Assembly: GCA_963575745.1 (NCBI GenBank)
Contig: CAUYUJ010014604.1
Coordinates: 333,087-397,086, forward strand
Reading direction: 5' to 3'
DNA length: 64,000 bases
Source of the DNA: Prorocentrum cordatum
Taxonomy: Eukaryota > Sar > Dinophyceae > Prorocentrales > Prorocentraceae
Positions within the stretch are counted from its first letter, which is position 1. Each line of letters starts with the position of its first letter. Made by a program: the position numbers and the translations under genes. Below, piece by piece: positions 2,561-34,033 of this stretch. Below the pieces are notes generated by a model. It made no database searches. It worked only from the letters and a program-made list of their open reading frames with translations, and was not told where the DNA came from.

Positions 2561-3276
2561 GGGGGTTGGAAGATGAAGCGCTCTAATCCACCTGCGTCCA
2601 GAGGGCTGGTGGGATTCCAAAGTGGCCCGCTTCGCCAAATTCCCAAATTTACGCGTTCATCCACCACTTGATTTTCAAGCCAACATATCTGGCGTCTGTC
2701 GAGTGAATCCACAATAGGGCGGACACGGCGACACCCATCGGGACGTAGAGACAGGACCAGCCATTGTTCGTGGACACGAGAAACCCACCGTGACGCAGGA
2801 ACACCCGCCATGACGCCGAAACGCCCGATCGCCCCTGCACAGGGTTGTGTGGGTGGGTGGGTGGGTGGGTGGGTGGGGTGTGTGTGGGAAGGGTGCGGGG
2901 TCTGCAGAAGGGGTGTGCGGCAGGGGGGCGAGGTCTGGAAGTGAGGAGGCAGGAGGAGGGGAGGGCAGGCAGACCTCCTGGTGGACGTCATGATGGGCCT
3001 CTCCGGCTCGCGGCCCGTCGGCCGAGCGCAGTGCCAGGCGCGACGTGCGTTCGACCGGCCGCCCTCTCCCCAGGGGAGGCAGCTCGGAGGCCGCGAGTTC
3101 TGGGGCGCGCGGCGCGCGGCTCGCTGGGCCGTGTGCTGCGGAGGGTCACGTGGGCCCCCCAGGGACTCGAAGATGTTGCGTCTGAGACCTTTTTGGGGCG
3201 GCGTCGGCTTCTGGAGGCTCGTTGGGCCCAGGACGGTCACATAGTGACTCGGGATGAAGCTCAGAGAGGGACAAGC
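2561..3276. other. Low-repeat stretch, no confident gene
   Basis: Contains a GTGG/GGGT tract at 2848-2880 and GC-rich DNA at 2985-3240. A frame at 3072-3240 (GRVLRRVTWAPQGLEDVASE) follows a CTCTCCCCAG acceptor-like site and could be an exon, but nothing further supports it. Confidence 0.35.
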
Positions 3277-3389: not shown

Positions 3390-4554
3390 TTCTCGTTTTC
3401 CAGGGGTGAAGGGCCAGCCCCATGGAAGGGGTCGCGACTTTTGGGAGTCCACCGCGAACAAAATCCCGACGTCGGGGGTCTCGGCGCCCTGGGCCCAGCG
3501 TCAATGGCGCGGGACCTCCAGGCCACCCGCCCGTGCGTGGGACACCAGTCGGCCGCCCTAGACGCCTCACTCATCCCCCCTCCCCCTCCTCTTGCTCCTC
3601 ACGCTCCTCGATCGAATAACAATGATAAACTTTCGGAGCTCCGTGCGGATGTCTCGGATCAGCGCATGCCAATTTTGTTCCTCTAGCTCCGCCCCTGGCT
3701 CCGTCCTCTCACGGCGAGGAGGGGCAAGAGCCAGCTCTGTAGTTGCGGCAGGTAGCTGGGGTCTCTGCGGCGTGAGGGCGCGGCAGATCTTGCAGGCCCG
3801 TGCGGGAGCGAACCCGACTTCGAGTCAGGCTCCGATCAGCCCGCCGAGATCCGAGGCCAGAGCAGAGAGGCCAGAGCAGAGATCGGACATTGGCTTCCCT
3901 CCATAGGGCCCCATCGGGTTTTGGTGCTCCTCGTGCTGCCGCTGCTTCTCCTCCTCCGTCTCCTTCCCCTCCCCAGGCAGCCGACGTCGTGTCTTTTTCG
4001 CAGCGTGGCTCTCCAGAGGTCTGGGCCTCTGCCCCCGGACGGGCTTTTCACCCAGGGTCGTCTTTTGACGGTCCCCAGGGCCAGTGGGGGCCCTGGGAGG
4101 CCCAAAGCGGCTGAAAACCGAGCGTTGCGATTTGTCCACGGCGCGAGGGTGTCAGGGTCCCCCTTCTTCCCCCTGACCCCATCATCTCCCGCCTCCCTCG
4201 GTGGGACGGGGGGGGCGGCGGAGTGCGGTAGGCGCAGCCGCCGCGCCTCTTCACGGGGGGAGGCGCTCGGCCTTGCAGAGCGTCGTCCCCCGAGCCTCTT
4301 GGCGCCCAGCGTCAGGGCGCTCCGAGGCTCGGCCCCCGAGGCCCCCTCTCTCGGCCGCGAGGCTCGAGTGTTCTCCGGCAGGGGGAGTGGATGGGGGCAG
4401 GCAGGAGGCGGGTCGTGACCGGCGGGGGGCAGAGGAGGAAGAATGTGGCAGAAGGAGGGCGGTGAGGAGGCAGAGGAGTGAGAAAGAGGAGGAGGAGGGG
4501 GAGGAGGAGGAGGAGGAGGAGGAGGAGGAGGAGGTGGATGATGATATTGAATTT
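3390..4554. other. No gene seen; IR-1 arm and GGA tract
   Basis: One arm of IR-1 (ATAAACTTTCGGAGCTCCG) lies at 3626-3665. Mixed GC-rich sequence follows, with a GGA tract at 4478-4537. Open frames are low-complexity. Confidence 0.5.
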
Positions 4555-19635: not shown

Positions 19636-20227
19636 ATGAAAACGATGATTATGACGACGACTCTGACGATGACGATGACGATGACGATGATGATGATGGT
19701 GGTGGTGATGATGATGATGACGATGATGTTGATGGTGAGGATGATAAGGATGATGATGATGATGACGATGCTGCTGATGCTGATGCTGCTGATGATGATG
19801 TGATGACGGTGCCGATGATGGTGGTGATGATGGTGATGATGCTAATGATGATGATGATGACGATGATGACGATGCTGCTGATGATGAGGAAGGTGCTAAT
19901 GATAATGCTGATGATCAGGACTCGGGCCAAACGATGTTTTGTCGATCTCGTGGATTGTTTTCGTTTTGATTTTGTTTCGCAGCAACGGCAGAACGAAAAT
20001 ATCACGAATAAAGCAACACCACCACGAAGACGAACATCACTTTTTTGCTCGAACCCTGATGATGATGATTTTGTTGTTGCTGATGATGATTGTGCTGATG
20101 AGTGTGATGATGATGCTGATGATGACTAGGGTGATGGTGGTGGTGATGATGCTGCTTATGCTGATGCTGGTGCTGATGCTGCTGCCGATGATAATGATGA
20201 TGCTGATGCTGATGCTGATGCTGATGC

Positions 20228-20265
<38 letters not shown>

Positions 20266-20290
20266 CTGATGATGATGATGTGGAGGAGTT
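19636..20290. repeat. GAT/GATGCT microsatellite
   Basis: Two GAT-rich blocks separated by about 130 bp of ordinary sequence (19915-20050). They give poly-D, poly-M or poly-I frames only. 20291-20556 has no gene. Confidence 0.9.
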
Positions 20291-20556
20291 GGAGGAGGAG
20301 GATGACTATGATGATGATGATCATGATGAATACTATGATCATGGCGGCAACGACCTTAATGATAATGATCGCGGTGGTGGTGGTAATGGTGATGACGAGG
20401 TGGAGGAGGCGCTGCGCATCCTGCTGCTGGTGCTCTCGCATCTCCCCCTGCTCTTTGCTTGACCTGGGCTCTGGTCCCCAGATGCCCCTTGAGGCAAACA
20501 AGCAAGTACGTATACTGTTAGCCGACGCGGACCCCAAGTAATGAGTTATTGCATTG

Positions 20557-20640
20557 AAGAAGTGCAGTATAGCTGGTGTAAGCTATGCGGTGTCAGCTAT
20601 GTTGGTGAAGCTTTATGATGTGAGCTATGTGGTGCAAGGG
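20557..20640. repeat. CTATGTGGTG-type repeat, left flank of LINE A
   Basis: Words such as AGCTATGCGGTGTCAGCTAT repeat with variation. The same family resumes at 30325. Confidence 0.65.
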
Positions 20641-20739
20641 TGAGGTCTCAGGGTGAGGTCTCTCACATACCACATCCTTCGCCTCATACTTCTCTCAGGA
20701 TGGCTTTACCTCTGGCATGGTGGGCGAACGCTTAGGACA

Positions 20740-21237
20740 GCCTGTTGAAAAAGCAGGAGGATAAGAGGAAGGACATGTTGGGCTCGATCAAACAGGATGT
20801 CCAGACTTTGAAAGGGGGATGTCACGGGCATCGAGCAGTCCCAAGAAGATTTGGAAAAGCGGGTCGGGAAGCTCGAGACGGGTCAGCCTGCGAGCTCCTG
20901 GCGTGCCACGTCACGTTCGTCGAAATCACGGAGTTGTGCGAGCGGGATAACACATCCGCCAAGGGGATGAACAGGACCGAGGCCACCGAATTGGTCTTGG
21001 AGTTGAAGGGCAAGCTTCCGCTGGAGCCCCGTGAGCACCTCAGGGAGATGCAGCGCAAGGGGCCCAGGAACCACGCCATCAAGATCCTTATGACGCCCGA
21101 GCACCCATAGGAGATCTGTGGGATCTGGTACGAGTATCTCACAAACGAAGACAAGAATTGGAACAAGGTGGACACCGTGATCTACGTGCGCGCCGAGAAC
21201 CACCCCGACGTCCAGGCGCAGTATACCGTAGTACACT
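20740..21237 (+). pseudogene. LINE A ORF1-like, broken
   Basis: The first part reads LKKQEDKRKDMLGSIKQDVQ; after a one-frame change it continues as DVTGIEQSQEDLEKRVGKLE, a clear coiled coil. It then returns to the original frame with MNRTEATELVLELKGKLPLE. An in-frame TAG follows at 21108-21110, after which EICGIWYEYLTNEDKNWNKV and VIYVRAENHPDVQAQY continue in the same frame. A coiled coil followed by a small alpha/beta domain is the usual layout of LINE ORF1 proteins that bind RNA. The RNA-binding role is inferred. No zinc knuckle was seen. Confidence 0.5.
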
Positions 21238-21519
21238 AAATTCTGGCGCGTCAAGGACTGAGTGCGGGATGGTATCGATGCGACGTTGGAGCCGAAAGTG
21301 AATTGGAGCCCAGATTTTAAATTGGTTATCAACAAGTCTGACACGGAGGGGAATATGGGTGTTAAGCCAAGTACAGTGTTAGGCGAGGCTCAGCTTGGAG
21401 CAGGTCTTCGGGTCGGTGGTCTGTCGAAAACAGCCGCAGAAAAAGGAGTCAGGCGGGTCCGGAGGAAGGGACCCTTCACTAGGCAGTAGGGGGATCCGCC
21501 GCTGAATTCGGGGGCGGAG

Positions 21520-22150
21520 GCTGCTCGGTTATCGCTCACAACGTCCACAATAATCCACGTGAAATACTTCGGATCAGCAGATGTTTGAACCGTTTGTGTG
21601 CTGGGGACGATGTTGTGTGCCTGCAGGAGATCCCGAAGTGGACCAGTGGGCGCAATTAGTTCCACAGGTGTGTTGCACATAGCAGCCGTACCATGAGGGC
21701 CGAACATGCCGGGGTGAGTTGATTCGATTGTGGCTTCTTGGTGCAGGGAAGCCTGAATCCGGAGGTGATGGACGGGAGGTCTGGCAAATATTGAGGTGGC
21801 CTTGTTCTGGCACAAGGCCCAGGCGGCTATATGTTAATTTTGCGTGCACATTCTATCCATGGGCAAGGGGAATGAGGAAGAGTATGAGGCATGCGATTTT
21901 GTTGATGAGGTGCGGGAGGAGACAGTAGCATATTGGAGGGACTGTCAGAGAGAAACGCTTTGGACGAAGTCTATGCGGGGTTTGCGGTTTCGATGCCAAC
22001 GTGATGCTTCCAGGAAGCATTGAGGGCGTAACTGCAGAGACTGTGCTGCGCCCTCTCCGCTCCCACATAGTAGGGATGTACCGCCGGATCATTTCATAGA
22101 TGGAAGTGTTGGGCATACGATCGGTCAATGCAAATGGCACCCGCGCGTCG
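21520..22150 (+). pseudogene. LINE A endonuclease (EEP) fragment
   Basis: The frame starting near 21528 reads SVIAHNVHNNPREILRISRC, then LNRLCAGDDVVCLQE. The N-V-x-N start and the D-V-V-C-L-Q-E block match the first two motifs of endonuclease/exonuclease/phosphatase domains, including the catalytic glutamate. Further on the sequence is shattered by stops and frame changes, and no GDFN motif is found. Together with the RT downstream it identifies the element as an apurinic-endonuclease-type LINE. 22150-22730 is non-coding or too decayed to read. Confidence 0.55.
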
Positions 22151-22729
22151 CGCGGGGAACTATGAACGTGTGGTCTGAAACGCCGGCCGTGGGATAGATC
22201 TCAGTCGACTACATCGGAGTAGTTATCCTCTATGCTACAGGTCGCTGGTCGTGCTCTTAACTATTTTGACATTCGTAATGAGAGCCCCCTGATAAAACAA
22301 CTGGGCCACAGTCGTCAAAACCGAGATCACATAGGTAGTGAGTGGTGATGGATTTGGTTCTCAGGGCTTAGCCTCGCACCAAAAATCTATGTGACTTTTA
22401 AGCGGGCTATATCCGACGCGTCGGTACGGGAGGCATTCAGATCCTTCGTCTTCTGGCCTGATGTGATTCGATTTTCCTTTGGGCGAGTTCGAAAAGGTTC
22501 TGTTCAAGATCATAGGAGTATTTTTTTGCCGACTGTGACCGCCCAGAAGACGATGGCAAAGGACAGCACCGCGCGCGGATCAAGGACAGCTGGGCGCTCC
22601 TGAGGCTCTCAACCGACACGGGGAGGATGAGATCATTGCTGAACTTGTATTGGGTGTCTAGGAGGGCCATGGCAGCATCTGTTTCCCGTGAGCGGCTTTA
22701 AGGGTTGAAAAGACACGGTGCGAAGGAAC

Positions 22730-24236
22730 CAAGTATTCCATCGGCCTTTTTCGGAATCGACGGCATCTAAAGCTCGGACAGAAAGGAGTGGCTAGAGGGG
22801 GCATTCCAGTTCGGCGCCGGTCGCTTCACGGACCCGGACAAACCACCCTCGTGGCAACGCAAGCGGATGCAACAGCTGTGGTCGGCAGCTTGTGATGGCC
22901 GCTTGGACGGCCGCGGTGGCGAGAACATCAAGCTTTGGAATGTCATGCAAGCGAGGGCCTTCTTGCGGAAAGTAGGGGTGCAGGGGCCGATGGTATTTCC
23001 CCGGATGTGTATCACGTGATCCCGTTTTCGGTATATTCCGTATCATTTTTTCAGAAGTGCGTTTTGTTGGGCCCATCGGTTCCGCGATCGCCTTTTTGGT
23101 GCATTTCGGAATTTTGAGGCTTGCCCAAGACGAAAGCTATGGAACGATTCGAAGACCTACGCGGGACCTGCGAAACAGCCAACCTTGAAACATGGTTTAT
23201 GCGAGCATTGCGTCCCATGCTCAGGCCAGGCCAAGTGCGTCCATCCTGCGTCCACTCCTACGGATTCCGAAATGGGATTTCCACGAGGAAGATGACTGGG
23301 CTGGTGTGAGAAGTTCGTCATCTCTATCACGTTTTGGGCCCACCAGTGATAGTCGAGTGCCAGGGCGTTCGCGTTCGACTCCATGCCGCATTGGCTGGCG
23401 AAGGATTCCCTGCTCGCTCGCGGGATGTCTTCGCACGGCGGCGGCTTCTTCATGCGGGAACTGAGCGGGCTTGAAGCCAGCATCCGCCTAACCCCGGTAG
23501 GCGAGACTGGGCGATCCCAATTTGCAGAACGAGGCAAGCAGGGCGGAATGGTAACGCCAGATGAGTGGAGGGCACTTCTACGACGCGTGTTGGAGCCACT
23601 CGTCAGATTGTGGATGGAGGCCAGAATTGGATGATAGAGGATCTGATCTTTTTGTCAACCGTGCGATTTGGGCCGACAGCCTAATATTATCTTGCCCTTG
23701 GGGAGGGCATGATGCAGCATATGATGCATCAGCTTGACGAGTTCATCGCTCAATCTCATAATTCTCGCGGTGAGCGATATTCGAAGCGGACTCTGGAGTT
23801 GCTAGATGTGCGGTGGGACTTCGGTGGCAATTCCATCGGGCTCTTATATTTGTAGCGGCCCAGAACCGCGTTATTGAACTAGCAGGAACACGGGCTTAGG
23901 TTATTTAGCGAATATCTGGGCCCCAGAGGAGCCACGGGCGACAGCGTGGATTCAAATTTTGGCCCTGCCTAGGAATGTCACTACCGACGCCAGTGCACGT
24001 TGCAGGTCCGATGCGCGCCAGTCTTGAAGCAGCTTCAAGCTTGGGCGACGGGCCCCGCAGCTTGCGCCGTACCCGTTTCAGAGAATTGGCACCTTACTGC
24101 CGTCTTGTTGCGTAAATATATGACGTGGGAGCTTCAGAAGTTGTGGAGGATGTTTCGTTTTCGCCGCCGCCCCGACGCATCGGCAATGCAAGTTGACCCG
24201 CGAATTTTGAATTGTGTCGGAAAGTAGATGTCAGCA
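22730..24236 (+). pseudogene. LINE A reverse transcriptase, broken
   Basis: Recognisable blocks occur in order across several frames: DRKEWLEGAFQFGAGRFTDP and KLWNVMQARAFLRKV (22768-22975), GADGISPDVYHVIPF (fingers), ARAFAFDSMPHWLA (motif A, near 23360-23410), ERGKQGGMVTPDEWRALL (motif B, near 23530), IWADSLIL (motif C, near 23670) and a tail block TWELQKLWRMFRFRRRPDAS. Motif C reads WADS where most RTs have YADD; dinoflagellate LINEs with W-A-D at this place are familiar to me, so this may be ancestral and not decay. Many stops and shifts show the copy is inactive. LINE B sits 3' of the last block. Confidence 0.7.
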
Positions 24237-24244
24237 GCTGTTTT

Positions 24245-24266
24245 TGTGCGTGCGACGCATGCTGTA
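24245..24266. repeat. Left target-site duplication of LINE B
   Basis: The 22 bases TGTGCGTGCGACGCATGCTG-TA are repeated exactly at 29340-29361. If one mismatch is allowed, the match extends about 6 bases further upstream. LINE-type integration makes such duplications. Here they duplicate the LINE A codons for VRATHAV. Confidence 0.72.
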
Positions 24267-24363
24267 TTGTGGAGGCCTGACGGTCGGCGCCGCCGACCCT
24301 GAAAGACACCGGCGACGACCGGGGGGGGGGGGGCGAGGAGGGGGAGGAGGAGGAAGAAGAAGG

Positions 24364-24385
24364 GCCGTAGCCGTTTTGGCTCAAG
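24364..24385 (+). other. Relic of the dinoflagellate spliced leader
   Basis: The published dinoflagellate leader starts D-CCGTAGCC, then A, then TTTTGGCTCAAG. Here G precedes CCGTAGCC (24365-24372), position 24373 is G instead of A, and TTTTGGCTCAAG fills 24374-24385: 21 of 22 positions. In a functional SL RNA gene a GT donor would follow; here GCAAAATC follows, so this is an mRNA-derived relic and not an SL gene. Such relics mark messages that were trans-spliced, reverse-transcribed and reinserted. It sits 153 bp before the first methionine of the LINE B ORF1 frame. Confidence 0.88.
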
Positions 24386-24537
24386 GCAAAATCTGTGGGA
24401 ATTCTAAACCCCCACCCCCAAGGAGGCGTCCGCGCGCGTGTTTTCTTCGTCCCACCGCAGAAGGCTGCCCGGCCAGGTGTGGACTTCCATATCCTTCCAT
24501 GCACTAACTGGTTGCATAATCAGTTCCCAGCGCTCAC

Positions 24538-25898
24538 ATGTGCAGCCGTGGGGGGGCGCAGCACCATAATATCACCTGCCCATCGTGCGGGTGCAAAAAG
24601 CACTTATCTTGGCAGAAGTGTTGCTATCATTGCGGGGGTCGTCTGTCGACCTCGGGTACTTCAGCGCCCCGGTCCGAAGCCTGCAGCTGGCCCGCTGCGC
24701 CCGTGGGTGGAGGTGGTCCAGGCTACAAAGGGGGTCAGTGGCCGCGGGCCCTCAGCCAGCCCCCGAAGGCCCACAGCAAGTACGGTTTCCAGTCTTATCC
24801 CCGCCCGCCAGGCCAGTCCAGAGCAGGTCTTTACATTGCAAGGCCACCACCATGGCACGAAGACATCGACGTGAGGGCCAACTGCTTCAAGGGCGGCGGC
24901 AACGGGAAGGGAGAGGTAAAGAAGGGCAATGGGGCAGAAAGGGGGCAAAGGATTGGAAGGAGCTGACGACGGGGAAGCAGCAGGAGGAGCCAGAGCACAT
25001 GCAGAGCAGCACGGCAATGGACCAGCACGTTTGTTGTATCGGATGGCTGAAGAAATTGCCAAGCCCCAGGAAGCACCTAAGCCCCGGACCTCCGTACCTC
25101 TCCAAGCTCACGTATAAAATCGAACAAGTCATGGGCAGGAAAGAGAAGCGAAGGGCTAAGTTGGCGGAGGACGTCTCTCATTGCGACATTCTCGTTGAGC
25201 ACGTCCAGGCCACCAGAGCAAATCTTTTGGAACAAATTTCTGAGCTCGACGTGGAAATGGAATCGCTCCGCATCCAGAACGCAGAGACAATTGAGCAGAC
25301 GTCCGCAGGCCCAACCGTTGCAACTCTTGAAAGGAAGCTCGGCTATTGGGACCAGGTCATCATGTCCCATCCCAACAAAGACGAGCTACTTGCCCATTAC
25401 GACCATGTCTATAAGGAGTAGGAGAATGGAGGGGTCGACGTTGAGGACGATGAGTCGGGGGTGTCTAGCATGGGCGAAGGCAGGAAAATGGGCCAGGGCA
25501 TATTTCGAAGCTACGCAGATGAAGCAGCAGAGGAGCAGCATGCAGAAGATCTTGCTCCCATGGGGGACGATGGGGTTTTTCGGCTGGACTATGGGGCTCC
25601 TCAGCGATCTAAAGGTTCCGCGCGCTGTAGAGCTGGTGTGGAAGCTGGGGACCTCGCAGCTGCCTTCAAAACGGCGGGGGCCGCTGGCGGCCAGCAGCCG
25701 GAGCAAATCTCGGCCCTGGCCCAGCAGCTCTCCGAACACCCGGCAAAGAAAGTCGTTCTGGGAGTCGGGCCCCCACCAGCGGGAGCAGCAGCGGAGGGTG
25801 CCCATTCAGCAAGCAGCGGGGCCAGAGGCCCACCACCCTCCAGACAAGAACCCCAAGAGCCAGGGGGATTCCCAGCAGTCGGGCAAGTCGGGGGCTAA
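24538..25898 (+). pseudogene. LINE B ORF1: zinc ribbon and coiled coil
   Basis: The first frame (from 24538) has TCPSCGCKKHLSWQKCCYHC, a CxxC...CxxC zinc ribbon like those opening dinoflagellate LINE ORF1 proteins. A frame change near 24900 leads to a basic segment, then a coiled coil (ILVEHVQATRANLLEQISEL, MESLRIQNAETIEQ). A single TAG at 25419-25421 interrupts the same frame, which then continues through an acidic, Q- and P-rich tail to 25898. The likely role is RNA binding in the retrotransposition particle, by family analogy. The TAG and the frameshift make this copy defective, unless either reflects a sequencing error. Confidence 0.6.
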
Positions 25899-25936
25899 GT
25901 CTAGAGGGGCCCTCGCGATCACCGCAGCCAATACGA

Positions 25937-28346
25937 GTGGGTGGTCAACTCTGGGACATAGTCTTCATCCAGGAACGCCGCGCTCGAGGAGACAAGCATG
26001 AGTATGCGGTTGCGCACTTTCGGTCAAAAGGATGGCGGTGTATCTCCACAGAAGCCATAGACGGACCTAGCAAAGGGGCAGCTGCAGGAACATGCATATT
26101 GGCTAAAAACCATCTCGACATTTTTAGTGGCAGAGCTCCAGCAAGTTTGTTCAAGGGCCGGCTATGCAGGTGCTTTCTTCGCACCCGAAGTTTCGGAACC
26201 ATCGCCGTGTACTCCATGTATCTGAAGGGCAAGGTTGGCTTGGACCCTTGCAACCTCAGCATGCTATCAGCCCTGGGGGAAGATATTGCAGTGCACGGCT
26301 GCCCTGTCATAGTCGGAGGGGATTTTAATGTGCCATTCGATGTTGTGCATGAGAATGCGCCGCTGCAACCATTGGGAGTGCACGTCAGAGCAGGAACGGA
26401 CCCAACCATGGTTCGCAGCAGGGGCAGCAACGCACATCGATTACTTCCTTGTCAGCACGGTGCTTTGCCGCGCTGTGAAGGGTGTGCAAGTTTACATGTC
26501 CACTCCCATTCCTCCTCATCGTCCTGTGCAGTCGTCGCTTGCAAAAGCCGCGCGTGACATGCGCGTCTCTGTCCCAGTTAAATATGCAGTATACCCGACA
26601 GAACAACGGATTGGGCCCAGAGCGCCCCCTCCAGACGTCACTCAACTCAGCACTAAGTTCGACGCGATCATATCCCGGCACAAGAGCGAAGATGGCACAA
26701 TATGGTCTCTTGCAGGAGATGACGGATCACGAGACGAGCTACAACAACAACTCAACTCCATTTACCAACAATGGACCGAAGCAGTTACACAACAATTTCA
26801 AGATGTCACAGGTGAGCGACCTAAAGGGATCCCTCCTGGCTCCCAGCAAAGGTTCACTAAGGTCACTCTTGCAAGCATGATGAAGACGAAGCATTACCGC
26901 ATGGAGCACACAGCACGAGCGGTCCACTGGATAACCCGTCGTCTCAGTGAACTATATCACCGATATCTGTCAGGCAATATAGTCAACTATACCACCGAGC
27001 TCGTGACCTCCCTCGACGACATAGGTAAGCACGGGCCCTTTACCAAATTCTGGAAAGATGGCCTTACAAGCTTACGATTACCTATGCAGCAGTTGGCTGA
27101 TGTCGTCAGGCAAGCATTTCAAAGCCAAGCAGTTACGCTGCTTGAGTTTACGCTGGCCCAAGTCTCACACCTCCAGCAAGCTCTCGAAACTGGGGGCCGC
27201 ATCCAATCCCGCCACAAGCGGCAAGCATGGTGCGACCAAGCCGCTGAAGGCAGTTCTAGTATGGCATATAGGCACATCAAAGGGCCCAACGATTTATCCT
27301 TGGAAGAAGTCCAATCGGAGTTTGGCATCTCAAGTTCTATTCCGGAGCTGCTCCAAGATCAAAGAGCCATATGGATGGAGAAATGGCAAGCTACCAATGA
27401 ACCCAACGACGTTCCCACGTTCATGGTTGTTAGACCACCACTGCTGCTTCCGCCGCCGCCTGAACCAGATGACCTTCGCCAGATATCAAAGAAGTTCAAG
27501 GCGCGCACCTGTGCTCCTGACGGGTTTCATCCCAAGCATTTTGGACTCCCTGAAGATTCAACCCTTGAGGTCATGGGTAAGCTCTTTACTATCATGAACA
27601 TCCTTTCCGACGCCCCGCAGCAGATGCAGTCCATTATACTATTACTGGCGAGGAAACACAAAAGGGGGGGAAGGAGAGTATTGGGCCATGTCCCAGCATT
27701 GTACAGGATTCAGGGAAAGCTGCAAGCGAGGACATGCAGAGAATGGGAACGGAAGGAAGGTTCAGGAGGACAGTTTTCGGCATCTAGCCGCAGGAGCCGT
27801 GAGGACACAGTATGGAGGCAAGCAGTCAAGGCCGAATCTGCCACGTATTGGTCCATGCATTACCTCGCACTCCTTTGGGACCTCAAAGCGTATTTCGAAA
27901 CGATCGATCATGAGCTGTTGCACGGGCAAGCGCATGCAGCGAAGTATCCTTTGCACGTGCTGTACTTCATGATTAATGTATACCGGTGGGGTAGGAGGCT
28001 CATGCTTGAAGGCATTATTACAGATGTAGCATATGCCACAAAAGGGATAACGGCTGGGGGCTCCACGGGAACGTACGGAGCTAAAGCCTACCTCCTCCCC
28101 TCCGTCAACAACCTCTCCCTCGCCAGCGCCGAGGCCGCCGTGCACGTTGATGACTTGACATTGTGGGCATGGGCTGAAAGTATCAGTGCATGCGTGCAAG
28201 CGATTGTTGATGCAGGCTTCGAGTTGAAACAAACATTAGACTCGCTGCTCTTAAAGCTAGCCATCGGTAAGATGGCAATCACAGGCAACTCGAACCTGGT
28301 TGTTTCAAGGCACTCTGTCACCGTCACAGCTAAGGGACGCATTTGA
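25937..28346 (+). pseudogene. LINE B endonuclease and reverse transcriptase
   Basis: The endonuclease starts in the frame of 25937 with WDIVFIQERRARG (catalytic E in IQE) and VIVGGDFNVPFD (GDFN at 26318-26329). One frameshift between about 26330 and 26400 moves to the frame of 26328-28346 (672 codons), which carries HIDYFLVS and PHRPV, the endonuclease C-terminus. The RT follows: FKARTCAPDGFHPKHF (fingers), WDLKAYFETIDHELLHGQ (motif A, Asp codon 27879), GITAGGSTGTYGAKAYL (motif B) and VHVDDLTLW (motif C, Asp codons 28149 and 28152). All three catalytic aspartates are intact. Without the one shift this would be a nearly complete ORF2. Possible replication slippage or assembly error cannot be excluded. 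Confidence 0.78.
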
Positions 28347-28530
28347 TGCAGCATTGCAAGCATTTGACAAGGTCAAGCACAACTCGTGGCACCAACGTAT
28401 GAAAGGGCCCATCAGCTTGATTATCTCATGGTTACACCAAGCCGGCTGGCAAATCGTCAATTCTACAACTTTCATTGACCTGAAAGGCCAAACGTACAAC
28501 AGTTTCAGACTTGGCATGCCCAGCCGATGA
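28300..28530 (+). pseudogene. LINE B RT C-terminal block, shifted frame
   Basis: This frame reads GTLSPSQLRDAFDAALQAF, then WHQRMKGPISLIISWLHQAG and W. The pattern W-x-R-x-x-GP-x6-L-x-x-x-GW is the thumb/connection block that follows RT in related dinoflagellate elements. It overlaps the end of the main RT frame, so one indel near 28300-28345 separates them. A stop ends the frame at 28530. Confidence 0.55.
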
Positions 28531-29339
28531 TCCAGACACCGCTTTAGTCGACTCCGTTGTGTTAGAGGTATGTCCCTTGCGACGGTTCCTATGTTGGCCT
28601 GAGCTTGGAGGGAGGTGGTCTGGGTCTGGGGGATGTGTGTATGACAAGGGGCGGGAGGGAATCGGAAACACCTGCAGAGTGTTGCGTGGACTGCCAGCAC
28701 GCAACAGCGTGCGTACGACCTCGCATCAGAGCGTCGTTGCTTCAGTCCTCCATTAGCATGCTAGTGTGGAGACTTCATTCCGAGCTTTCCGAGGAAGAAG
28801 AAGAGGAGGAGGAGGCGGAGATAACGAGGCGGGAATCAGGAGGAGGAGGAGGAGGAGGAAGAGGAGGAGGAGGAAAAGGAGGAGGAAAAGGACTCCTTCC
28901 TGGACCCCCCCCCTGGGGAGGAGGACTGGAGGAAGGTGGCGTGGGAGAGGGGAGGGGAGGGGGAGGAGGACCCCCAGGGACGGATGCGCATATGACTCCC
29001 ATCCCCCCCTTTGGGATTCCTCTCCACTTGGGGGGGAGGACCCGATGAGGACCGGCGCGCCGGAGAAGGACCAGCGTGGGAGAGGAGGACCCCCAGAGGC
29101 GATGCGAGTCTGAACCCCCCCCGGGACCCCCCCCTCGCCGGGGAAGGGACAAAGGGAAGGGGCTTCCCTTTGACTTGACTACAACGTGGGTCGATTCCCC
29201 TCAATCCCCAGACTCCTTCCCCCGACGACGGGAGAGTGCTCTCTCCCTCCCGACGGGGAAGGATAAACAGAAAAGGCGTCCCGTCGACGGGGTCAGACAG
29301 ACCCCTCACGCGCGCCGACAGGGTCGGCGGTTTTGTTTG
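28531..29339 (+). other. LINE B 3' region, non-coding
   Basis: No ORF of any family is seen. It contains a GAA/GGA tract (28796-28890), C-runs in CCCCCCTGGGG-type words and short repeats of GGGAGGAGGACCC. It ends GGGTCGGCGGTTTTG just before the right target-site duplication. Confidence 0.5.
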
Positions 29340-29652
29340 TGTGCGTGCGACGCATGCTGTAATTCAGTCGGATTGGGACAAGCACTTGTGGAATTTAGAT
29401 TCTGCTGAAAACCAGCTTGCAGTAGCACGCGACTGCCGATCGACGGTGTGGGTGGGGACAACACGAACGCTTGCGTATTATGCAAAGCGACGTCGGTTGG
29501 GGATCGTGCGTTCGACAACGGGGCATCCAGTGAAATCTTGGGAGCATCATTTCACTTGCGCATGGCAGACGAGCGGAGGCGATTGGCAGGTGCATCGACG
29601 AACTTGTTCTTCCAGGGAAAATTGGGTGAAGACGTTCGAACAGTCTTCTGAG
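29336..29652 (+). pseudogene. LINE A post-RT region, resumed after LINE B
   Basis: The frame reads CVRATHAVIQSDWDKHLWNL, then DSAENQLAVARDCRSTVWVG, HPVKSWEHHFTCAWQTSGGD and WQVHRRTCSSRENWV. Spaced tryptophans with R and H are typical of the segment between RT and RNase H in dinoflagellate LINEs. It continues what stops at 24236-24266. 29653-30038 carries only short decayed pieces of the same linker. Confidence 0.55.
29340..29361. repeat. Right target-site duplication of LINE B
   Basis: Exact second copy of the 22-mer at 24245-24266. After it the LINE A reading frame resumes. Confidence 0.72.
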
Positions 29653-30038
29653 GACCTCTGAAATCAGTGGGGCCTTCCAGCGCAACGGGCGGAACGAGCA
29701 AAATGTGGTTTTTGGACGCCGGTCACGGTGCGCTTCCTGGCGGTGGATTCTGAGCTTTCGAAGCCTAGCCCTCGCGAGTGTTCCAGGGACTTACTTGGGC
29801 GGCGTGTTTGAATGCATGCAGATAACCAACATATTGTCCATGGTGGCGTGTCAGTTCTGAAAGGTGATCATTGCAGGCCGTTGTTCGTACGCCGCATTTC
29901 CGAGTCACTGCTGACTTTTCACCATCTGAACATCTAGCCCCGGAAACAGACCACTGAGTTCGTTGAGTGGGATTCGCGCTATTACGATGCCCTTGCGGAT
30001 GACGCCGCCGATAAAGCTCAGGACCGAGGGCTGTTTCG

Positions 30039-30299
30039 TTGCGCGTGCACCGCGATAGCGTGGAAACAACACGAACCAGTGCAGTCAAGTACCGTCTACG
30101 TTTCGACGGTGCCAGGCGCGGCTCGGGTGAAGCAGCTGCTGGTGTTGCCGTCCTCGCATATTTTTCAGGGGCGAGAGATCTCCTGCTCCGTTCTGGAAAA
30201 TTGCTTGGAGCCTTGTCATCGGCCTTCGTTGCCGAAGCACTCGCTGCAGAATGGTGCCTGGACCTATTATTCTCATCTTGTCCGGTTACACGTATGTGA
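30039..30299 (+). pseudogene. LINE A RNase H, N-terminal half
   Basis: The frame reads KYRLRFDGARRGSGEAAAGV, AVLAYF, LLLRSGKLLGA and SAFVAEALAAEWCLDLLF. The first catalytic Asp (codon 30105, in FDGA) and the catalytic Glu (codon 30234, in AEALAAEW) are present with the usual beta-strand spacing. The frame ends at 30299 before the third carboxylate, so the domain is cut short. RNase H removes RNA from the RNA-DNA hybrid during reverse transcription. This half-domain cannot be active. Confidence 0.62.
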
Positions 30300-30324
30300 A
30301 CCGCATGTCCTTTAAGGGAAGGAA

Positions 30325-30660
30325 AGACAGCTATGTGGTGCAGGCGCTGTCGTGTACGCTATGTGCTGTAAGCTATGCTGTGTGAGCTCTGTGGTTTGCG
30401 CTGCATGGTGCACGTACTTTTGTCTGCGTTATGATGTGTACATTCTGTTGCGTGGCCGATTTTATCATGGTGTAAGGCATGTTGTTTAATCCATGTGGTG
30501 TTAAGTCTGATGTGAAAACCACTCTTTGTAGTAAATGAGGCGTAGGGTATGTGGTGCAAACTGTGCAGTATAAGCTATGCGGCTATGCGGTGTGAGCTGT
30601 GTGTTGCACTCTACGTGGTGCAAGCTATGTGGAGTACGCCATGTTGTGCACGCTATGTGG
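30325..30660. repeat. CTATGTGGTG-type repeat, right flank of LINE A
   Basis: CTATGTGGTGCA, GCTATGCTGTGTGAGC and relatives recur roughly every 12-16 bases. It is the presumed continuation of 20557-20640, interrupted by LINE A. Confidence 0.7.
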
Positions 30661-30810
30661 TGTAGACGCACGGGGCGCCCACGGGGCGCTCACGAGCGGG
30701 CGCGGGCGCCAACGCGGCGAATGTTCGGGAAATCCACGCAGCGCACGGGGCGCCCGAGAGGCGAAAACGAACGGGCACGGGCGCCAAGGTGACGAAATCC
30801 CGGAAACCGA
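30660..30810. repeat. Two tandem units of about 70 bp
   Basis: ACGGGGCGCCCACGGGGCGC and ACGGGGCGCCCGAGAGGCGA start two units that both end GCGCCAA-G-GACGAAATCCCGG-like. Confidence 0.6.
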
Positions 30811-30889
30811 TCCAATGAGTTTAGAAAGCCAGGTACGAGACACCTTGGGTGCACACATTGTTTGGGGAAAGATGTATACGTATATGTAT

Positions 30890-30990
30890 AAGTGTACGTT
30901 TGAATGTATGTATGTGTGTATGTGTGTATGAATGTATGTATGCATGCATGCATGCATGCATGCATGCATTTATGTATGTATGTATGTCAG
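30890..30990. repeat. TATG microsatellite
   Basis: TATG and CATG tetranucleotide run at the edge of the first modular repeat. Confidence 0.88.
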
Positions 30991-31011
30991 AGTGAGGGGG
31001 CAGAACGGTCA

Positions 31012-31440
31012 TTCATTGTCCCTGGGTGCGCGGCTTAAGTGCAGATCCGTGGTGAGGGTTGTTGTTGTTCTTGTTGTTGTTGTTGTGATTGTTGTTTGTT
31101 GTTGTCGTCCCCCACGCGACACGGCCCGCGACCCACCCGCGACCCACCCCGCGACCCACCCGCGACCCACCCCGCGACCCGCTCGCGTCCCACCCGCGAC
31201 CCACCCGCGACCCACCCGCGACCTACCCGCGACCCACCGCCGACCCACCCGCGACCCACCCGCGACCCAACCCGCGACCCACCTACATTGTTTTAACAAA
31301 AATCGGCGCCTGCGGTTGGCTCGTTGTATAGCTTGAGAATTTTGCGCCTGTGGCGAGCTTCATCAGAGCCTCGCAAATTGCAGACATCCTTGTTGCCCCC
31401 TCACTTTTATCCGCAACGGAACGGGTGTTACGCGTGTGTA
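31012..31440. repeat. Modular repeat M, copy a (forward)
   Basis: Module order: CTTAAGTGCAGATCCGTGGT, a TTG tract, a minisatellite of ACCCACCCGCG (31125-31290), then GTTTTAACAAAAATCGGCGC, TATAGCTTGAGAATTTTGCG, CCCTCACTTTTATCCGCAAC and a TATG tract. The same modules recur in reverse at 32400-33240 and 33655-34131 and forward at 34132-35880. Confidence 0.78.
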
Positions 31441-31750
31441 TGTATGTATGTATGTATGTATGTATGTATGTATGTATGTATGTATGTATGTATGTATGTA
31501 TGTATGTATGTATGTATGTATTTTGTATGCATGTATGTATGTATGTATTAATGTCATGTAATGTCATGTAATTTAATGTAATGTAATGTAATGTAATGTA
31601 ATGTAATGTAATGTAATGTAATGTAATGTAATGTAATGTAATGTAATGTAATGTAATGTAATGTAATGCAATGCAATGTAATGTAATGTAATGTAATGTA
31701 ATGCAATGTAATGTAATGTAATGTAGTGTAATGTAATGTAATGTATGTGT
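31430..31750. repeat. TATG then TAATG microsatellites
   Basis: TATG run to about 31545, then a pentanucleotide TAATG run (31560-31750). Both strands give only periodic peptides. Confidence 0.92.
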
Positions 31751-31869
31751 GTATGTATGTATGTATGTATGTACGTAGCACCCCGCAATTGCGGATAAGA
31801 GTGAGGGGGCGGGCGCGGGCGACGCGAGCGTCGTCGAGACGGCGGACCTCGTGGCCCCCACCTTCCTGT

Positions 31870-32150
31870 CGATGGCGCTCTCCTCCTCCTCCTCCTCCTC
31901 GTCCTTGTCCTCATCGTCATCGTCATCCTCCTCCTCCACCTCGTCCTCCTCCTCCTCCTCTTCTTCCTCGTCCTCCCTCTCCCCCCTCGTCCTTTCATCA
32001 TCGTCCTCCCATTGTCGTCCCCCCCTCATCGGCCTCCATCATCGTCCTCCCATTGTCGCCCATCATCATCATCCTCCCCCTCCTCCCCGTCCTCGTCCTC
32101 CTCCTCCCCCTCCTCCCCCTCCTCCCCCTTCTCGTCCTCCTGCTCCTCCT
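31870..32150. repeat. CTC/CTCGTC tract
   Basis: Pyrimidine-rich plus strand, mirror image in composition of the GGA tracts elsewhere. 32151-32399 holds no gene. Confidence 0.85.
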
Positions 32151-32399
32151 CCTTTTCTTTCTCCACATTCTCCTTACATCCTCTCTTCTTCCGCGTTCTC
32201 CTCGTCCCCTGTTTACTCCTCCTGCCTCCCCCTCTTTTCCCAAGATATCTGCAACGCAATCTTTTTTTCCACTTTATGCTCCCCGCCTTCTCTGATCAAG
32301 GCAACTCGCCAGGGCAGAGTTGCTGGACGGGTTGGTGTGGATGCGCGGGGCTTGAAGAGGTCCTTGCGGGCTCAGACAGCATGCACAAATCAGCAGCCG

Positions 32400-33240
32400 C
32401 GCTTGTGCGGCATTGGTTTGTTCAGTGAACGTGGTTTAGGTCGCGGGTGGGTCGCGGGCTCTCCACCTCCACCTGGAAGGAATGCAAAAGCAGCCCGCCG
32501 CAGGCGCCGAAAAAATTCGTTTGTACACTGAACGTGGTTTGGGTCGCGGGTGGGCCGCGGGTTCTCCACCGGGAACGAATGCAAAAGATGCCCGCCGCTG
32601 TGGTTTGTACCCTGAACGTGGTCGCGGGTGGGCCGCGGGCTCTCCACCTGAAACGAATGCAAAAGATGCCCGCCGCAGGCGCCGAAAAATGTAGTTTGTA
32701 CCCTGAGCGTGGTTTGGGTCGCGGGTTGGTCGCGAGTTGGTCACGGGGTGGGTCGCGGGCTCTCCACCTGGAAGGAATGCCAAAAAAGCCCGCCGCAAGC
32801 GCCGATAATGGTGGTTTGTACCTTGAACGTGGTTTGGGTCGCGGGTGGGTCGCGGGTGGGTCGCGGGGTAGGTCGCGGGCGGGTCGCGGGTGGGTCGCGG
32901 GTGGGTCGCGGGTGGGTCGCGGGGTGGGCCGCGGGCGGGTCGCGGGGTGGGTCGCGGGGTAGGTCGCGGGGTAGGTCGCGGGGTGGGTCGCGGGGTGGGT
33001 CGCGGGTGGGTCGCGGGTGGGTCGCGGGTGGGTCGCGGGTTGGGTCGCGGCGTGGGTCGCGGGTGGGTCGCGGGGCGGGTTGCGGGTGGGACGACGACAA
33101 CAAACAACAACAACAAACAACAACAACAAACAACAACAAACAACAACAACAAACAACAACAACAACGATAATCCGCACCACGGAATTCCACTTCAGCCAC
33201 GCACCCAGGGACACTGAATGACCGTTTGGCCCTCACTCTG
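32400..33240. repeat. Modular repeat M, copy b (reverse, expanded)
   Basis: Five units of about 65-115 bp (GAACGTGGTTTGGGTCGCGG, CTCTCCACCTGGAA, AATGCAAAAGATGCCCGCCG) lead into a GGGTCGCGGGTG minisatellite (32830-33085), an AAC tract (33105-33165), CCGCACCACGG and the TATG tract. Confidence 0.75.
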
Positions 33241-33655
33241 ATGTATGTATGTATGTATGTACGTATGTATGTATGTATGTATGCATGCATGCATTCATGC
33301 ATGTACGTATGTATGTATGTACGCATATATACATGCATGCATGTATGCATGCATGTATATATACATGTACATATGTACGTATGTACGTATGTACGTATGT
33401 ACGTATGTATGTATGTATGTATGTATGTATGTATATGTGTATGTATGTTTGTATACATAGATGCATGCATGTATATATGTAAATATACGCATTTATATAT
33501 ACACATTTGTATACACGCATGCATGTACGTATGTATATATCGATGTACGTGTATATGTACGTACGTACGTACGTACGTACGTACGTATGTATGTATGTAT
33601 GTATGTATGTATGTATGTATTTGTGTATGCATGCGTGTATTCATGTATGTATGTG
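33240..33655. repeat. TATG/TACG microsatellite
   Basis: About 415 bases of ATGT and ACGT tetranucleotides between two reverse M copies. Confidence 0.9.
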
Positions 33656-33988
33656 TGTAGGTGGCAGGGACGTCAGCAGCTTGCGAGGCTCTGAACAAGC
33701 CCGCCACAGGCGCAACATTTTCAAGCTATACAGCGAGCCCGCCGCAGGCGCCGATTTTTTGCTAAAACAATGTAGGTGGGTCGCGGGTTGGATCGCAGGT
33801 GGGTCGAGGGGGGGCATGGTCGGCGGTAGATCGCGGGTGGGTCGCGGGCCAGGTCGCGGGTGGGTCGCGGGTGGGTCGCGGGTGGGTCGCGGGTGGGTCG
33901 CGAGCGGGTCGCGCGGTGGGTCGCGAGTGGATCGCGGGGTGGGTCGCAGGTGGGTCGCTGGCCGGGTCGCGGGGGGGACGACGACAAC

Positions 33989-34033
<45 letters not shown>

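What the first reader, a model, noticed from the sequence alone, without database searches (positions are those of the whole stretch)
24364..24385. Spliced-leader relic at the 5' end of a LINE
A 22-base window matches the dinoflagellate spliced leader at 21 positions (only 24373 differs) and is followed by GCAAAATC, not a donor. It sits between the left target-site duplication and the first ORF of LINE B. The simplest reading is that the LINE transcript received the leader by trans-splicing and that a leader-bearing copy was reverse-transcribed. A retrotransposon using the host's leader would gain a capped, translatable message. The 97 bases between duplication and leader are unexplained.
Basis: partly seen in the sequence, partly recalled or inferred. 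Interest (0 to 1): 0.87.

Follow-up and report, generated by a model that had tools for sequence, protein, structure and literature searches.

The report
Spliced leader heads dinoflagellate LINEs
In this dinoflagellate genome, several jumping genes of the LINE kind carry at their front end the short leader that the cell splices onto its messenger RNAs, which suggests that they copy themselves from leader-bearing messages and settle in AGG/CCT repeats.

Summary
Confirmed and extended. The 22-nt match (21/22) is real and is the window's only spliced-leader (SL) match below 6 mismatches. An inner 13-nt repeat (24350-24362 / 28791-28803) ends one G before the leader, so the SL is the 5' terminus of the insertion 24363-28790.

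The window's own genome (4.13 Gb, apparently Prorocentrum cordatum) was searched. The one other copy of LINE B's 5' end found there (L053) carries an SL plus a 15-nt SL relic exactly where the window's leader sits, as expected if the old leader's GTAG accepted a new one. Starting from LINE-B-related reverse transcriptases, 11 of 20 blind intervals hold a sense SL (0 antisense), all 11 behind an AGG-rich purine tract. Starting from SL sites, 8 of 20 lead into a sense LINE, and 33 of 48 follow a tract at least 90% purine or pyrimidine.

Best reading: LINE transcripts are trans-spliced, reverse-transcribed to the leader and inserted into AGG/CCT repeats, repeatedly and in several families. No RNA data were available. 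SL-tagged retrocopies are known, and trans-spliced retrotransposons have been suggested for flatworms.

The parts
24364..24385 (+). Full-length dinoflagellate spliced leader (21 of 22; 24373 A>G) at the 5' terminus of the inserted LINE
24363..24363 (+). One extra G between the inner target-site duplication and the leader (possibly cap-derived; that reading is recalled from L1 biology)
   Evidence: sequence; interpretation inferred
24350..24362 (+). Left copy of inner 13-nt target-site duplication GAGGAAGAAGAAG, end of an AGG-rich tract
   Evidence: 0 of 1000 shuffles reach 13 nt
28791..28803 (+). Right copy of inner target-site duplication, followed by more AGG-rich sequence
24363..28790 (+). 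SL-LINE insertion (LINE B), degenerate: frames broken, internal deletion, C-terminus not recognisable
24538..24966 (+). Short first ORF (142 aa) with a CPSCG...CYHCG zinc-knuckle-like stretch (motif recalled, not tested with a model)
25955..26332 (+). Apurinic-type endonuclease domain (Exo_endo_phos, 23.9 bits, just below the cut-off 24.5)
27654..28205 (+). Reverse transcriptase domain (RVT_1 18.7 bits, below cut-off 29.6; but 3.4e-46 to a Prorocentrum cordatum RT protein, P0001)
28292..28315 (+). Junction where about 157 residues of the RT (P0001 residues 292-448) are missing; the sister copy L053/L055 keeps at least residues 407-596
28773..28790 (+). 3' tail CTTCATTCCGAGCTTTCC, resembling the ...CATTCC / ...GGAATTCC tails of SL-LINEs L033 and L040 (judged by eye)
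24239..24266 (+).
29334..29361 (+). Outer 28-nt direct repeat, right copy (1 mismatch)
24267..24349 (+). Most of the '97 bases': pre-insertion sequence. Its first 53-54 bases recur in L042 (81%) and, weakly, L043 (74%, E 0.002), starting at the same base; the 3' part is the AGG-rich tract that the LINE entered

Best explanation
An APE-type LINE whose transcript received the host's spliced leader by trans-splicing was reverse-transcribed to its very 5' end and inserted into an AGG-rich repeat, leaving a 13-nt target-site duplication directly outside the leader (plus one G). LINEs of this clade do so habitually. The leader is at the 5' end of copies in several families. When a leader-headed copy is transcribed again, the GTAG inside its own leader can serve as the next trans-splice acceptor. 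The new copy then shows a fresh leader followed by a 15-nt relic. SHOWN: leader position, inner duplication, AGG/CCT context, relics, recurrence across families. INFERRED: transcription, the trans-splicing itself, target-primed reverse transcription, the enzyme, and the benefit of a cap.
For: Leader 21/22 and the only one in the window. Inner TSD abutting it. Sister copy L053, found by LINE body alone (query began after the leader), has SL + 15-nt relic at the homologous junction, behind an AGG tract that ends in (GAC)n. Reverse test: 11 of 20 LINE-B-related RT copies have a sense SL (10 exact, 1 with 1 mismatch) in a blind interval, 0 of 20 antisense; chance of at least 10 exact is 6e-23; all 11 follow a purine tract. 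Family pairs with and without relic: L079 SL|TACGAAACC and L066 SL+relic|TACGAAACC; L081 and L078. Forward test: 8 of 20 SL loci lead into a sense LINE RT, P0001 matches at +2.8 to +5.9 kb, none antisense (background 5.7%, P 8e-6). SL-LINEs L033, L040, L045 have 13-15-nt TSDs abutting the SL that recur 6.08-6.15 kb downstream.
Against: No transcript evidence. 9 of 20 blind intervals had no leader (L064, L065, L067-L071, L073, L074); one of them, L068, is 728 of 1001 N. A leader outside the interval, or truncation, was not checked. The nearest RT relative, C12248, lacks leader and LINE B similarity in 1.8 kb. The inner TSD is simple sequence, and the same 13-mer occurs once more in the window (14813). 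The sister's own TSD was not found. The window's leader has G, not the usual T, at position 1 (T in 41 of 48 loci).
Confidence: 0.86

Rival explanations
1. The leader is now a fixed, inherited piece of the LINE 5' end (acquired once), copied by transcription from an upstream or internal promoter; no fresh trans-splicing occurs per cycle.
For: Within families the leader joins at one constant place (L006/L037/L040; L072/L075/L077). Song et al. 2018 (PMC6050394, parts 1 and 2 of 3 read) propose that a relic leader could act as a promoter.
Against: Relics of 15 nt behind a fresh leader in L053, L066, L076, L078, L082, L039, and same-family pairs with and without a relic, need renewed trans-splicing. 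The outer leader is better preserved than the relic (L053: 1 versus 4 changes, counted on the sequences).
Confidence: 0.1
2. Coincidence: a host retrogene's leader landed just upstream of an unrelated LINE.
For: Leaders are common (14,721 exact copies).
Against: Chance of a same-strand leader in a given 1 kb is 0.0018; 10 of 20 exact hits were seen. L053 has the leader at the homologous base.
Confidence: 0.01
3. An SL RNA gene, or a template jump of the reverse transcriptase onto SL RNA.
For: Same 22 nt; template jumping onto small RNAs is known for LINEs (recalled).
Against: The match stops exactly at the splice junction; no GT donor and no Sm-like T-run follow, unlike the SL-gene-like unit in L003 (AAG|GTACG...). 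No Rfam match at gathering level. A jump should carry intron sequence too.
Confidence: 0.02
4. The AGG/CCT tract beside leaders reflects selection for expressed copies (a pyrimidine tract for trans-splicing), not insertion preference.
For: Among sampled leaders, pyrimidine tracts outnumber purine ones (24 to 9).
Against: All 11 leader-bearing LINE-B relatives, and the window copy, have the purine strand upstream, and L053 an AGG tract, useless as a pyrimidine tract; Fisher 2e-5 for the 11 against the 33 tracts of the sample. TSDs fall inside tracts.
Confidence: 0.12

Closest known systems
Dinoflagellate SL-tagged retrogenes / mRNA recycling (Slamovits and Keeling 2008, as described in PMC6050394, parts 1 and 2 of 3 read; PMC12014239, passages)
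   Same: A leader-bearing RNA is reverse-transcribed; 15-nt relic after re-trans-splicing at the internal AG.
   Different: Here the copied RNA encodes the LINE itself, so the leader passes through the mobile element's own cycle; AGG/CCT context and TSDs are shown. PMC6050394 leaves the responsible retroelement unknown and favours LTR Ty1/copia.
Leader fragments in LTR and LINE loci of flatworms (PMC12582326, one passage seen)
   Different: There partial leaders only, and an aside; here full leaders with TSDs, relic series and recurrence in families, in another supergroup.
Trypanosomatid L1Tc/ingi LINEs with Pr77 (PMC8190864, start of abstract in listing)
   Same: LINEs in protists that use SL trans-splicing.
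   Different: They carry a 5' sequence that activates transcription and give unspliced translatable transcripts.
Microsatellite-targeting non-LTR retrotransposons (PMC4640811, start of abstract in listing; R1-clade examples recalled)
   Same: Insertion into simple repeats.
   Different: The abstract speaks of restriction-like-endonuclease elements; these have an APE-type endonuclease and a host leader at the 5' end.
dinoRNAV virus with a 5' dinoSL (PMC10235124, passages)
   Same: A parasite RNA bearing the host leader in dinoflagellates.
   Different: RNA virus and endogenous fragments, not a retrotransposon.

Membership tests
APE-type non-LTR retrotransposon (LINE) | Reverse transcriptase domain | tested here: met
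   P0001 3.4e-46; RVT_1 itself below Pfam cut-off, 18.7 of 29.6 bits
APE-type non-LTR retrotransposon (LINE) | Apurinic-type endonuclease domain | tested here: inconclusive
   Exo_endo_phos 23.9 bits, cut-off 24.5, in the window copy; 31.1 bits, above the cut-off, in SL-LINE L048
APE-type non-LTR retrotransposon (LINE) | Target-site duplication, no long terminal repeats | tested here: met
   13-nt inner TSD; no direct repeat of LTR kind among the 20 families shown of 30 for 20000-34000, and no long self-match of the element's ends
APE-type non-LTR retrotransposon (LINE) | Intact autonomous coding capacity | tested here: not met
   Window copy has broken frames, missing RT residues and no recognisable C-terminus; it is a dead copy. 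Relative L040 has one open frame of 1998 aa across endonuclease and RT matches
SL-tagged retrocopy | Leader or relic at the 5' end, just inside the target-site duplication | tested here: met
   L033, L040, L045 likewise
SL-tagged retrocopy | Relic of 15 nt behind a new leader on re-expression | tested here: met
   Not in the window copy; met in DNA of sister L053
SL-tagged retrocopy | Leader on the element's RNA | not testable with these tools
   No RNA reads held
SL RNA gene | GT donor after the 22-nt exon and Sm-like site | tested here: not met
   GCAAAATC follows (by reading); contrast L003
Microsatellite-targeted LINE | Insertions concentrated in one simple-repeat class, one orientation | tested here: met
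   11 of 11 leader-bearing relatives in AGG-rich purine tracts; relatives without a leader, and the biochemical target, not tested

The most novel reading that the evidence does not exclude
In this dinoflagellate the spliced leader has become part of the LINE life cycle. Each new copy is capped by the host's leader. The leader's internal GTAG gives the copy a ready trans-splice acceptor wherever it lands. Different LINE clades aim at opposite strands of AGG/CCT repeats, and the same machinery makes the thousands of leader-tagged host retrocopies. That would make LINEs, not Ty1/copia, the engine of dinoflagellate mRNA recycling.
Probability: 0.5. Interest if true: 0.88.

Novelty: new variant of a known kind. 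Interest (0 to 1): 0.78.

Why it matters
Which reverse transcriptase recycles dinoflagellate mRNAs into the genome is described as unknown (PMC6050394). Leader-headed LINEs with target-site duplications, and leader-tagged copies sitting in the same AGG/CCT repeats, point to LINE machinery and make the question testable with long-read RNA and with strain comparisons. A mobile element that takes its 5' end from the host's splicing system, and turns that leader into the acceptor for its next round, would be an unusual solution to the LINE's problem of carrying its own promoter and cap. Relic counts could also serve as a count of retrotransposition rounds per copy.

Tried and rejected
Rejected: SL RNA gene (no donor or Sm-like site; L003 is what one looks like). 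Chance (and the reverse test). The 28-nt repeat as the LINE's own duplication (the inner repeat fits better, and part of the 97 bases recurs elsewhere).

Led nowhere or gave little: Rfam scan (no match); viral-contig scan with RT patterns (nothing); protein search with the endonuclease (nothing); protein search with the L040 frame gave 3 LINE-like proteins from ena and jgi sources, without given names, in which no leader-encoded peptide was found; a comparison of 28470-29340 with the missing RT C-terminus gave no convincing match, although one frame scored 46 against a shuffle maximum of 45; outer-flank comparisons gave weak, partly low-complexity matches; the sister's 3' TSD was not found; a genome-wide count of CCT-tract leaders did not complete.

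Corrections: one search used 12 leader-bearing intervals where the right count is 11 (10 exact, 1 with one mismatch); recomputed.

Sampling: the 48 leader loci are the 8 given, the next 20 of its list and 20 picked by hand further down the list before their surroundings were seen, with entries passed over and five A>G leaders among them; one leader counted per locus although L038 and L047 hold more. In the forward LINE test L032 and L046 are short and L044 is 5000 of 7000 N; all three stay in the 20. In the reverse test the window itself and C19696 (too near its contig end) were left out, and only the best-scoring relatives were used (69 matches listed, 66 of 22,439 candidates scored); L068 is mostly N and stays in the 20 as a miss.

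Full report
WHAT WAS CHECKED. The window 24364-24385 differs from the dinoflagellate leader at one base (24373) and is the only such match within 3 mismatches in 64 kb; 0.01 is expected by shuffling, and the next best have 6 mismatches. It is followed by GCAAAATC. The window lies in a 4.13-Gb assembly, G000:C13755:333087-397086. Contig C1 has 3,562,531 bases; the Prorocentrum cordatum CCMP1329 assembly is described as 4.15 Gb with a largest scaffold of 3.56 Mb (PMC10666404, passages), and the one protein relative found for the RT is named P. cordatum. I therefore take the source to be P. cordatum. This is an inference; the contig count, 21,875 against 22,724 published scaffolds, is close but not equal.

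THE 97 BASES. A second repeat of 13 nt, GAGGAAGAAGAAG, lies at 24350-24362, one G before the leader, and at 28791-28803. In 1000 dinucleotide shuffles of 28346-29333 the longest match ending at the leader was 12. Both sides continue as AGG-rich sequence, so the site without the LINE reads as one AGG-rich tract. The sequence before the right copy, CTTCATTCCGAGCTTTCC, resembles by eye the ends of two other SL-LINEs, CATTCCATTCCATTCC in L033 and GGAATTCCAGGAATTCC in L040; L045 has an A-rich end instead. The SL-LINE is therefore taken as 24363-28790, nested in an older sequence. The first 53-54 bases of that older sequence recur in L042 (81%) and weakly in L043 (74%), starting at the same base.

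THE LINE. It has an apurinic-type endonuclease just below the Pfam cut-off and an RT related to P0001 of P. cordatum (32% over residues 19-291, then residues 449-501). Residues 292-448 are missing at 28292-28315, and nothing after residue 501 is convincingly recognisable. The sister copy keeps residues 407-596 at least. The window copy is dead.

SISTER COPY. A whole-genome DNA search with 24386-25186, which starts after the leader, found one relative besides the window itself, on contig C16923 (counts are lower bounds). It reads ACCGTAGCCATTTTGGCTAAAG, then CCGTTGTTGCTGAAG, then GCAAAATC, behind an AGG tract that ends in GACGACGACG. The middle 15 bases are what remains of an older leader cut at its own GTAG. 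They share the A>G of the window's leader. The fresh leader has 1 change, the relic 4. This is the series predicted by two rounds of trans-splicing and retrotransposition in one lineage.

REVERSE TEST, FROM RT TO 5' END. The LINE B RT matched 69 places (66 of 22,439 candidates scored). For 20 of the best I fetched a stretch lying about 1.6-2.6 kb upstream of the RT match start (1.0-2.8 kb for C12248) without having seen it. Eleven of 20 have a leader in sense: 10 exact, and L078 with one mismatch. None has one antisense, where the best match has 7 to 11 mismatches; shuffles give 7 to 10, and 15-16 for the N-rich one. All 11 follow a purine tract (at most 13% pyrimidine in 30 nt). The nine without are L064, L065, L067, L068 (728 of 1001 N), L069, L070, L071, L073, L074; I did not look further upstream. 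L065 and L070 have a CCT tract, L071 and L074 a purine tract, in the interval without a leader. C12248 (L064, 83% aa) shares no DNA with window 24200-29500 in the 1.8 kb read. The chance of at least 10 exact hits is 6e-23 with the observed leader density. Pairs of one family with and without relic occur: L079 and L066; L081 and L078. L072, L075 and L077 join the leader to the same LINE base at three sites.

FORWARD TEST, FROM LEADER TO LINE. Of 20 leader loci with up to about 7 kb downstream (L047 longer; L044 mostly N, L032 and L046 short), 8 lead into an RT in sense (P0001 matches at +2.8 to +5.9 kb), none in antisense. With the window as background (5.7% of positions, all of it from LINE B itself) P is 8e-6. 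L033, L040 and L045 have 13, 15 and 13 nt repeats that end at the leader and recur 6.08-6.15 kb downstream; L039 has only a plain CTC repeat match; L042, with no RT match, has a 21-nt one at 813 nt and an A-rich end. L040 has one open frame of 1998 residues across endonuclease and RT matches. L039 shows leader, perfect relic and degenerate relic.

TARGET. In 33 of 48 leader loci the 30 nt before the leader are at least 90% pyrimidine (24) or purine (9), against 3.7% of positions in the window. In leader-bearing LINE-B relatives it is purine in 11 of 11, while the LINEs L033, L039, L040 and L045 have the pyrimidine strand; L037, L038 and L050 lack such a tract, and L048 falls just short (83% pyrimidine). 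Clade-specific orientation argues for a target preference of the machinery rather than selection for a pyrimidine tract. How a leader behind a purine tract is later used as an acceptor (L066, L076, L078, L082 have relics) is unexplained.

MECHANISM. Shown: leader at the 5' terminus of insertions, duplications, tract context, relic series, recurrence. Inferred: LINE RNA is trans-spliced, reverse-transcribed to the leader and inserted by target-primed reverse transcription; the extra G may be a copied cap (known for L1, recalled). No RNA was seen.

LITERATURE. Leader-tagged retrogenes are well known (PMC6050394, parts 1 and 2 of 3 read; PMC12014239, passages). PMC6050394 calls the responsible retroelement unknown and favours Ty1/copia. 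PMC12582326 suggests for flatworms that leader fragments in LTR and LINE loci come from trans-spliced retrotransposons (one passage), so the idea is not new. I found no report of leader-headed LINEs or of AGG/CCT tracts at leader-tagged copies in dinoflagellates in the listings of searches of the held library, nor in the passages read of PMC10666404, PMC11453091, PMC7245778, PMC8045281, PMC10235124, PMC3229502, PMC3942190 and PMC12014239; Song et al. 2017 was not held, and most subscription papers are not in the library.

Noticed in passing
L001 (IMGVR_UViG_3300045993_001077) 2746-2766 and 2893-2913, minus strand: Two exact dinoflagellate leaders in an AT-rich, giant-virus-like contig; the second directly precedes a GC-richer intronless 254-aa frame (1936-2700 minus; only a sub-threshold Pfam match). 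Looks like a dinoflagellate leader-bearing mRNA retroposed into a viral genome.
   Followed up: partly
L003 (JAKUNN010000063.1, labelled Dehalococcoidia MAG) 4334-4354, minus strand: An SL RNA gene-like unit (leader followed by GTACG) downstream of what looks like an LSU rRNA end (recognised by eye) in a contig binned as bacterial: probable contamination.
   Followed up: no
L004, L010, L012, L026, L033, L048, L050, L051 just after the leader: A conserved box like GGATACCGCTAGTCCGCGGC about 25-40 nt after the leader in otherwise diverged copies; function unknown.
   Followed up: partly
L080 and L083, just after the leader: A fresh leader followed by an almost full-length older leader (TCCGTAGCCGTTGGGCTCAG) instead of the usual 15-nt relic: trans-splicing upstream of the old leader.
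   Followed up: no
L047, leaders at 501, 5742, 8778: Tandem array of leaders with nearly the same upstream and downstream sequence each time: probably DNA duplication of a leader-tagged gene.
   Followed up: no
window 24290-24301 and 29319-29330: Near both ends of the outer 28-nt repeat lies the same 12-mer in inverted order (CCGCCGACCCTG / CAGGGTCGGCGG); the outer element is unidentified.
   Followed up: partly
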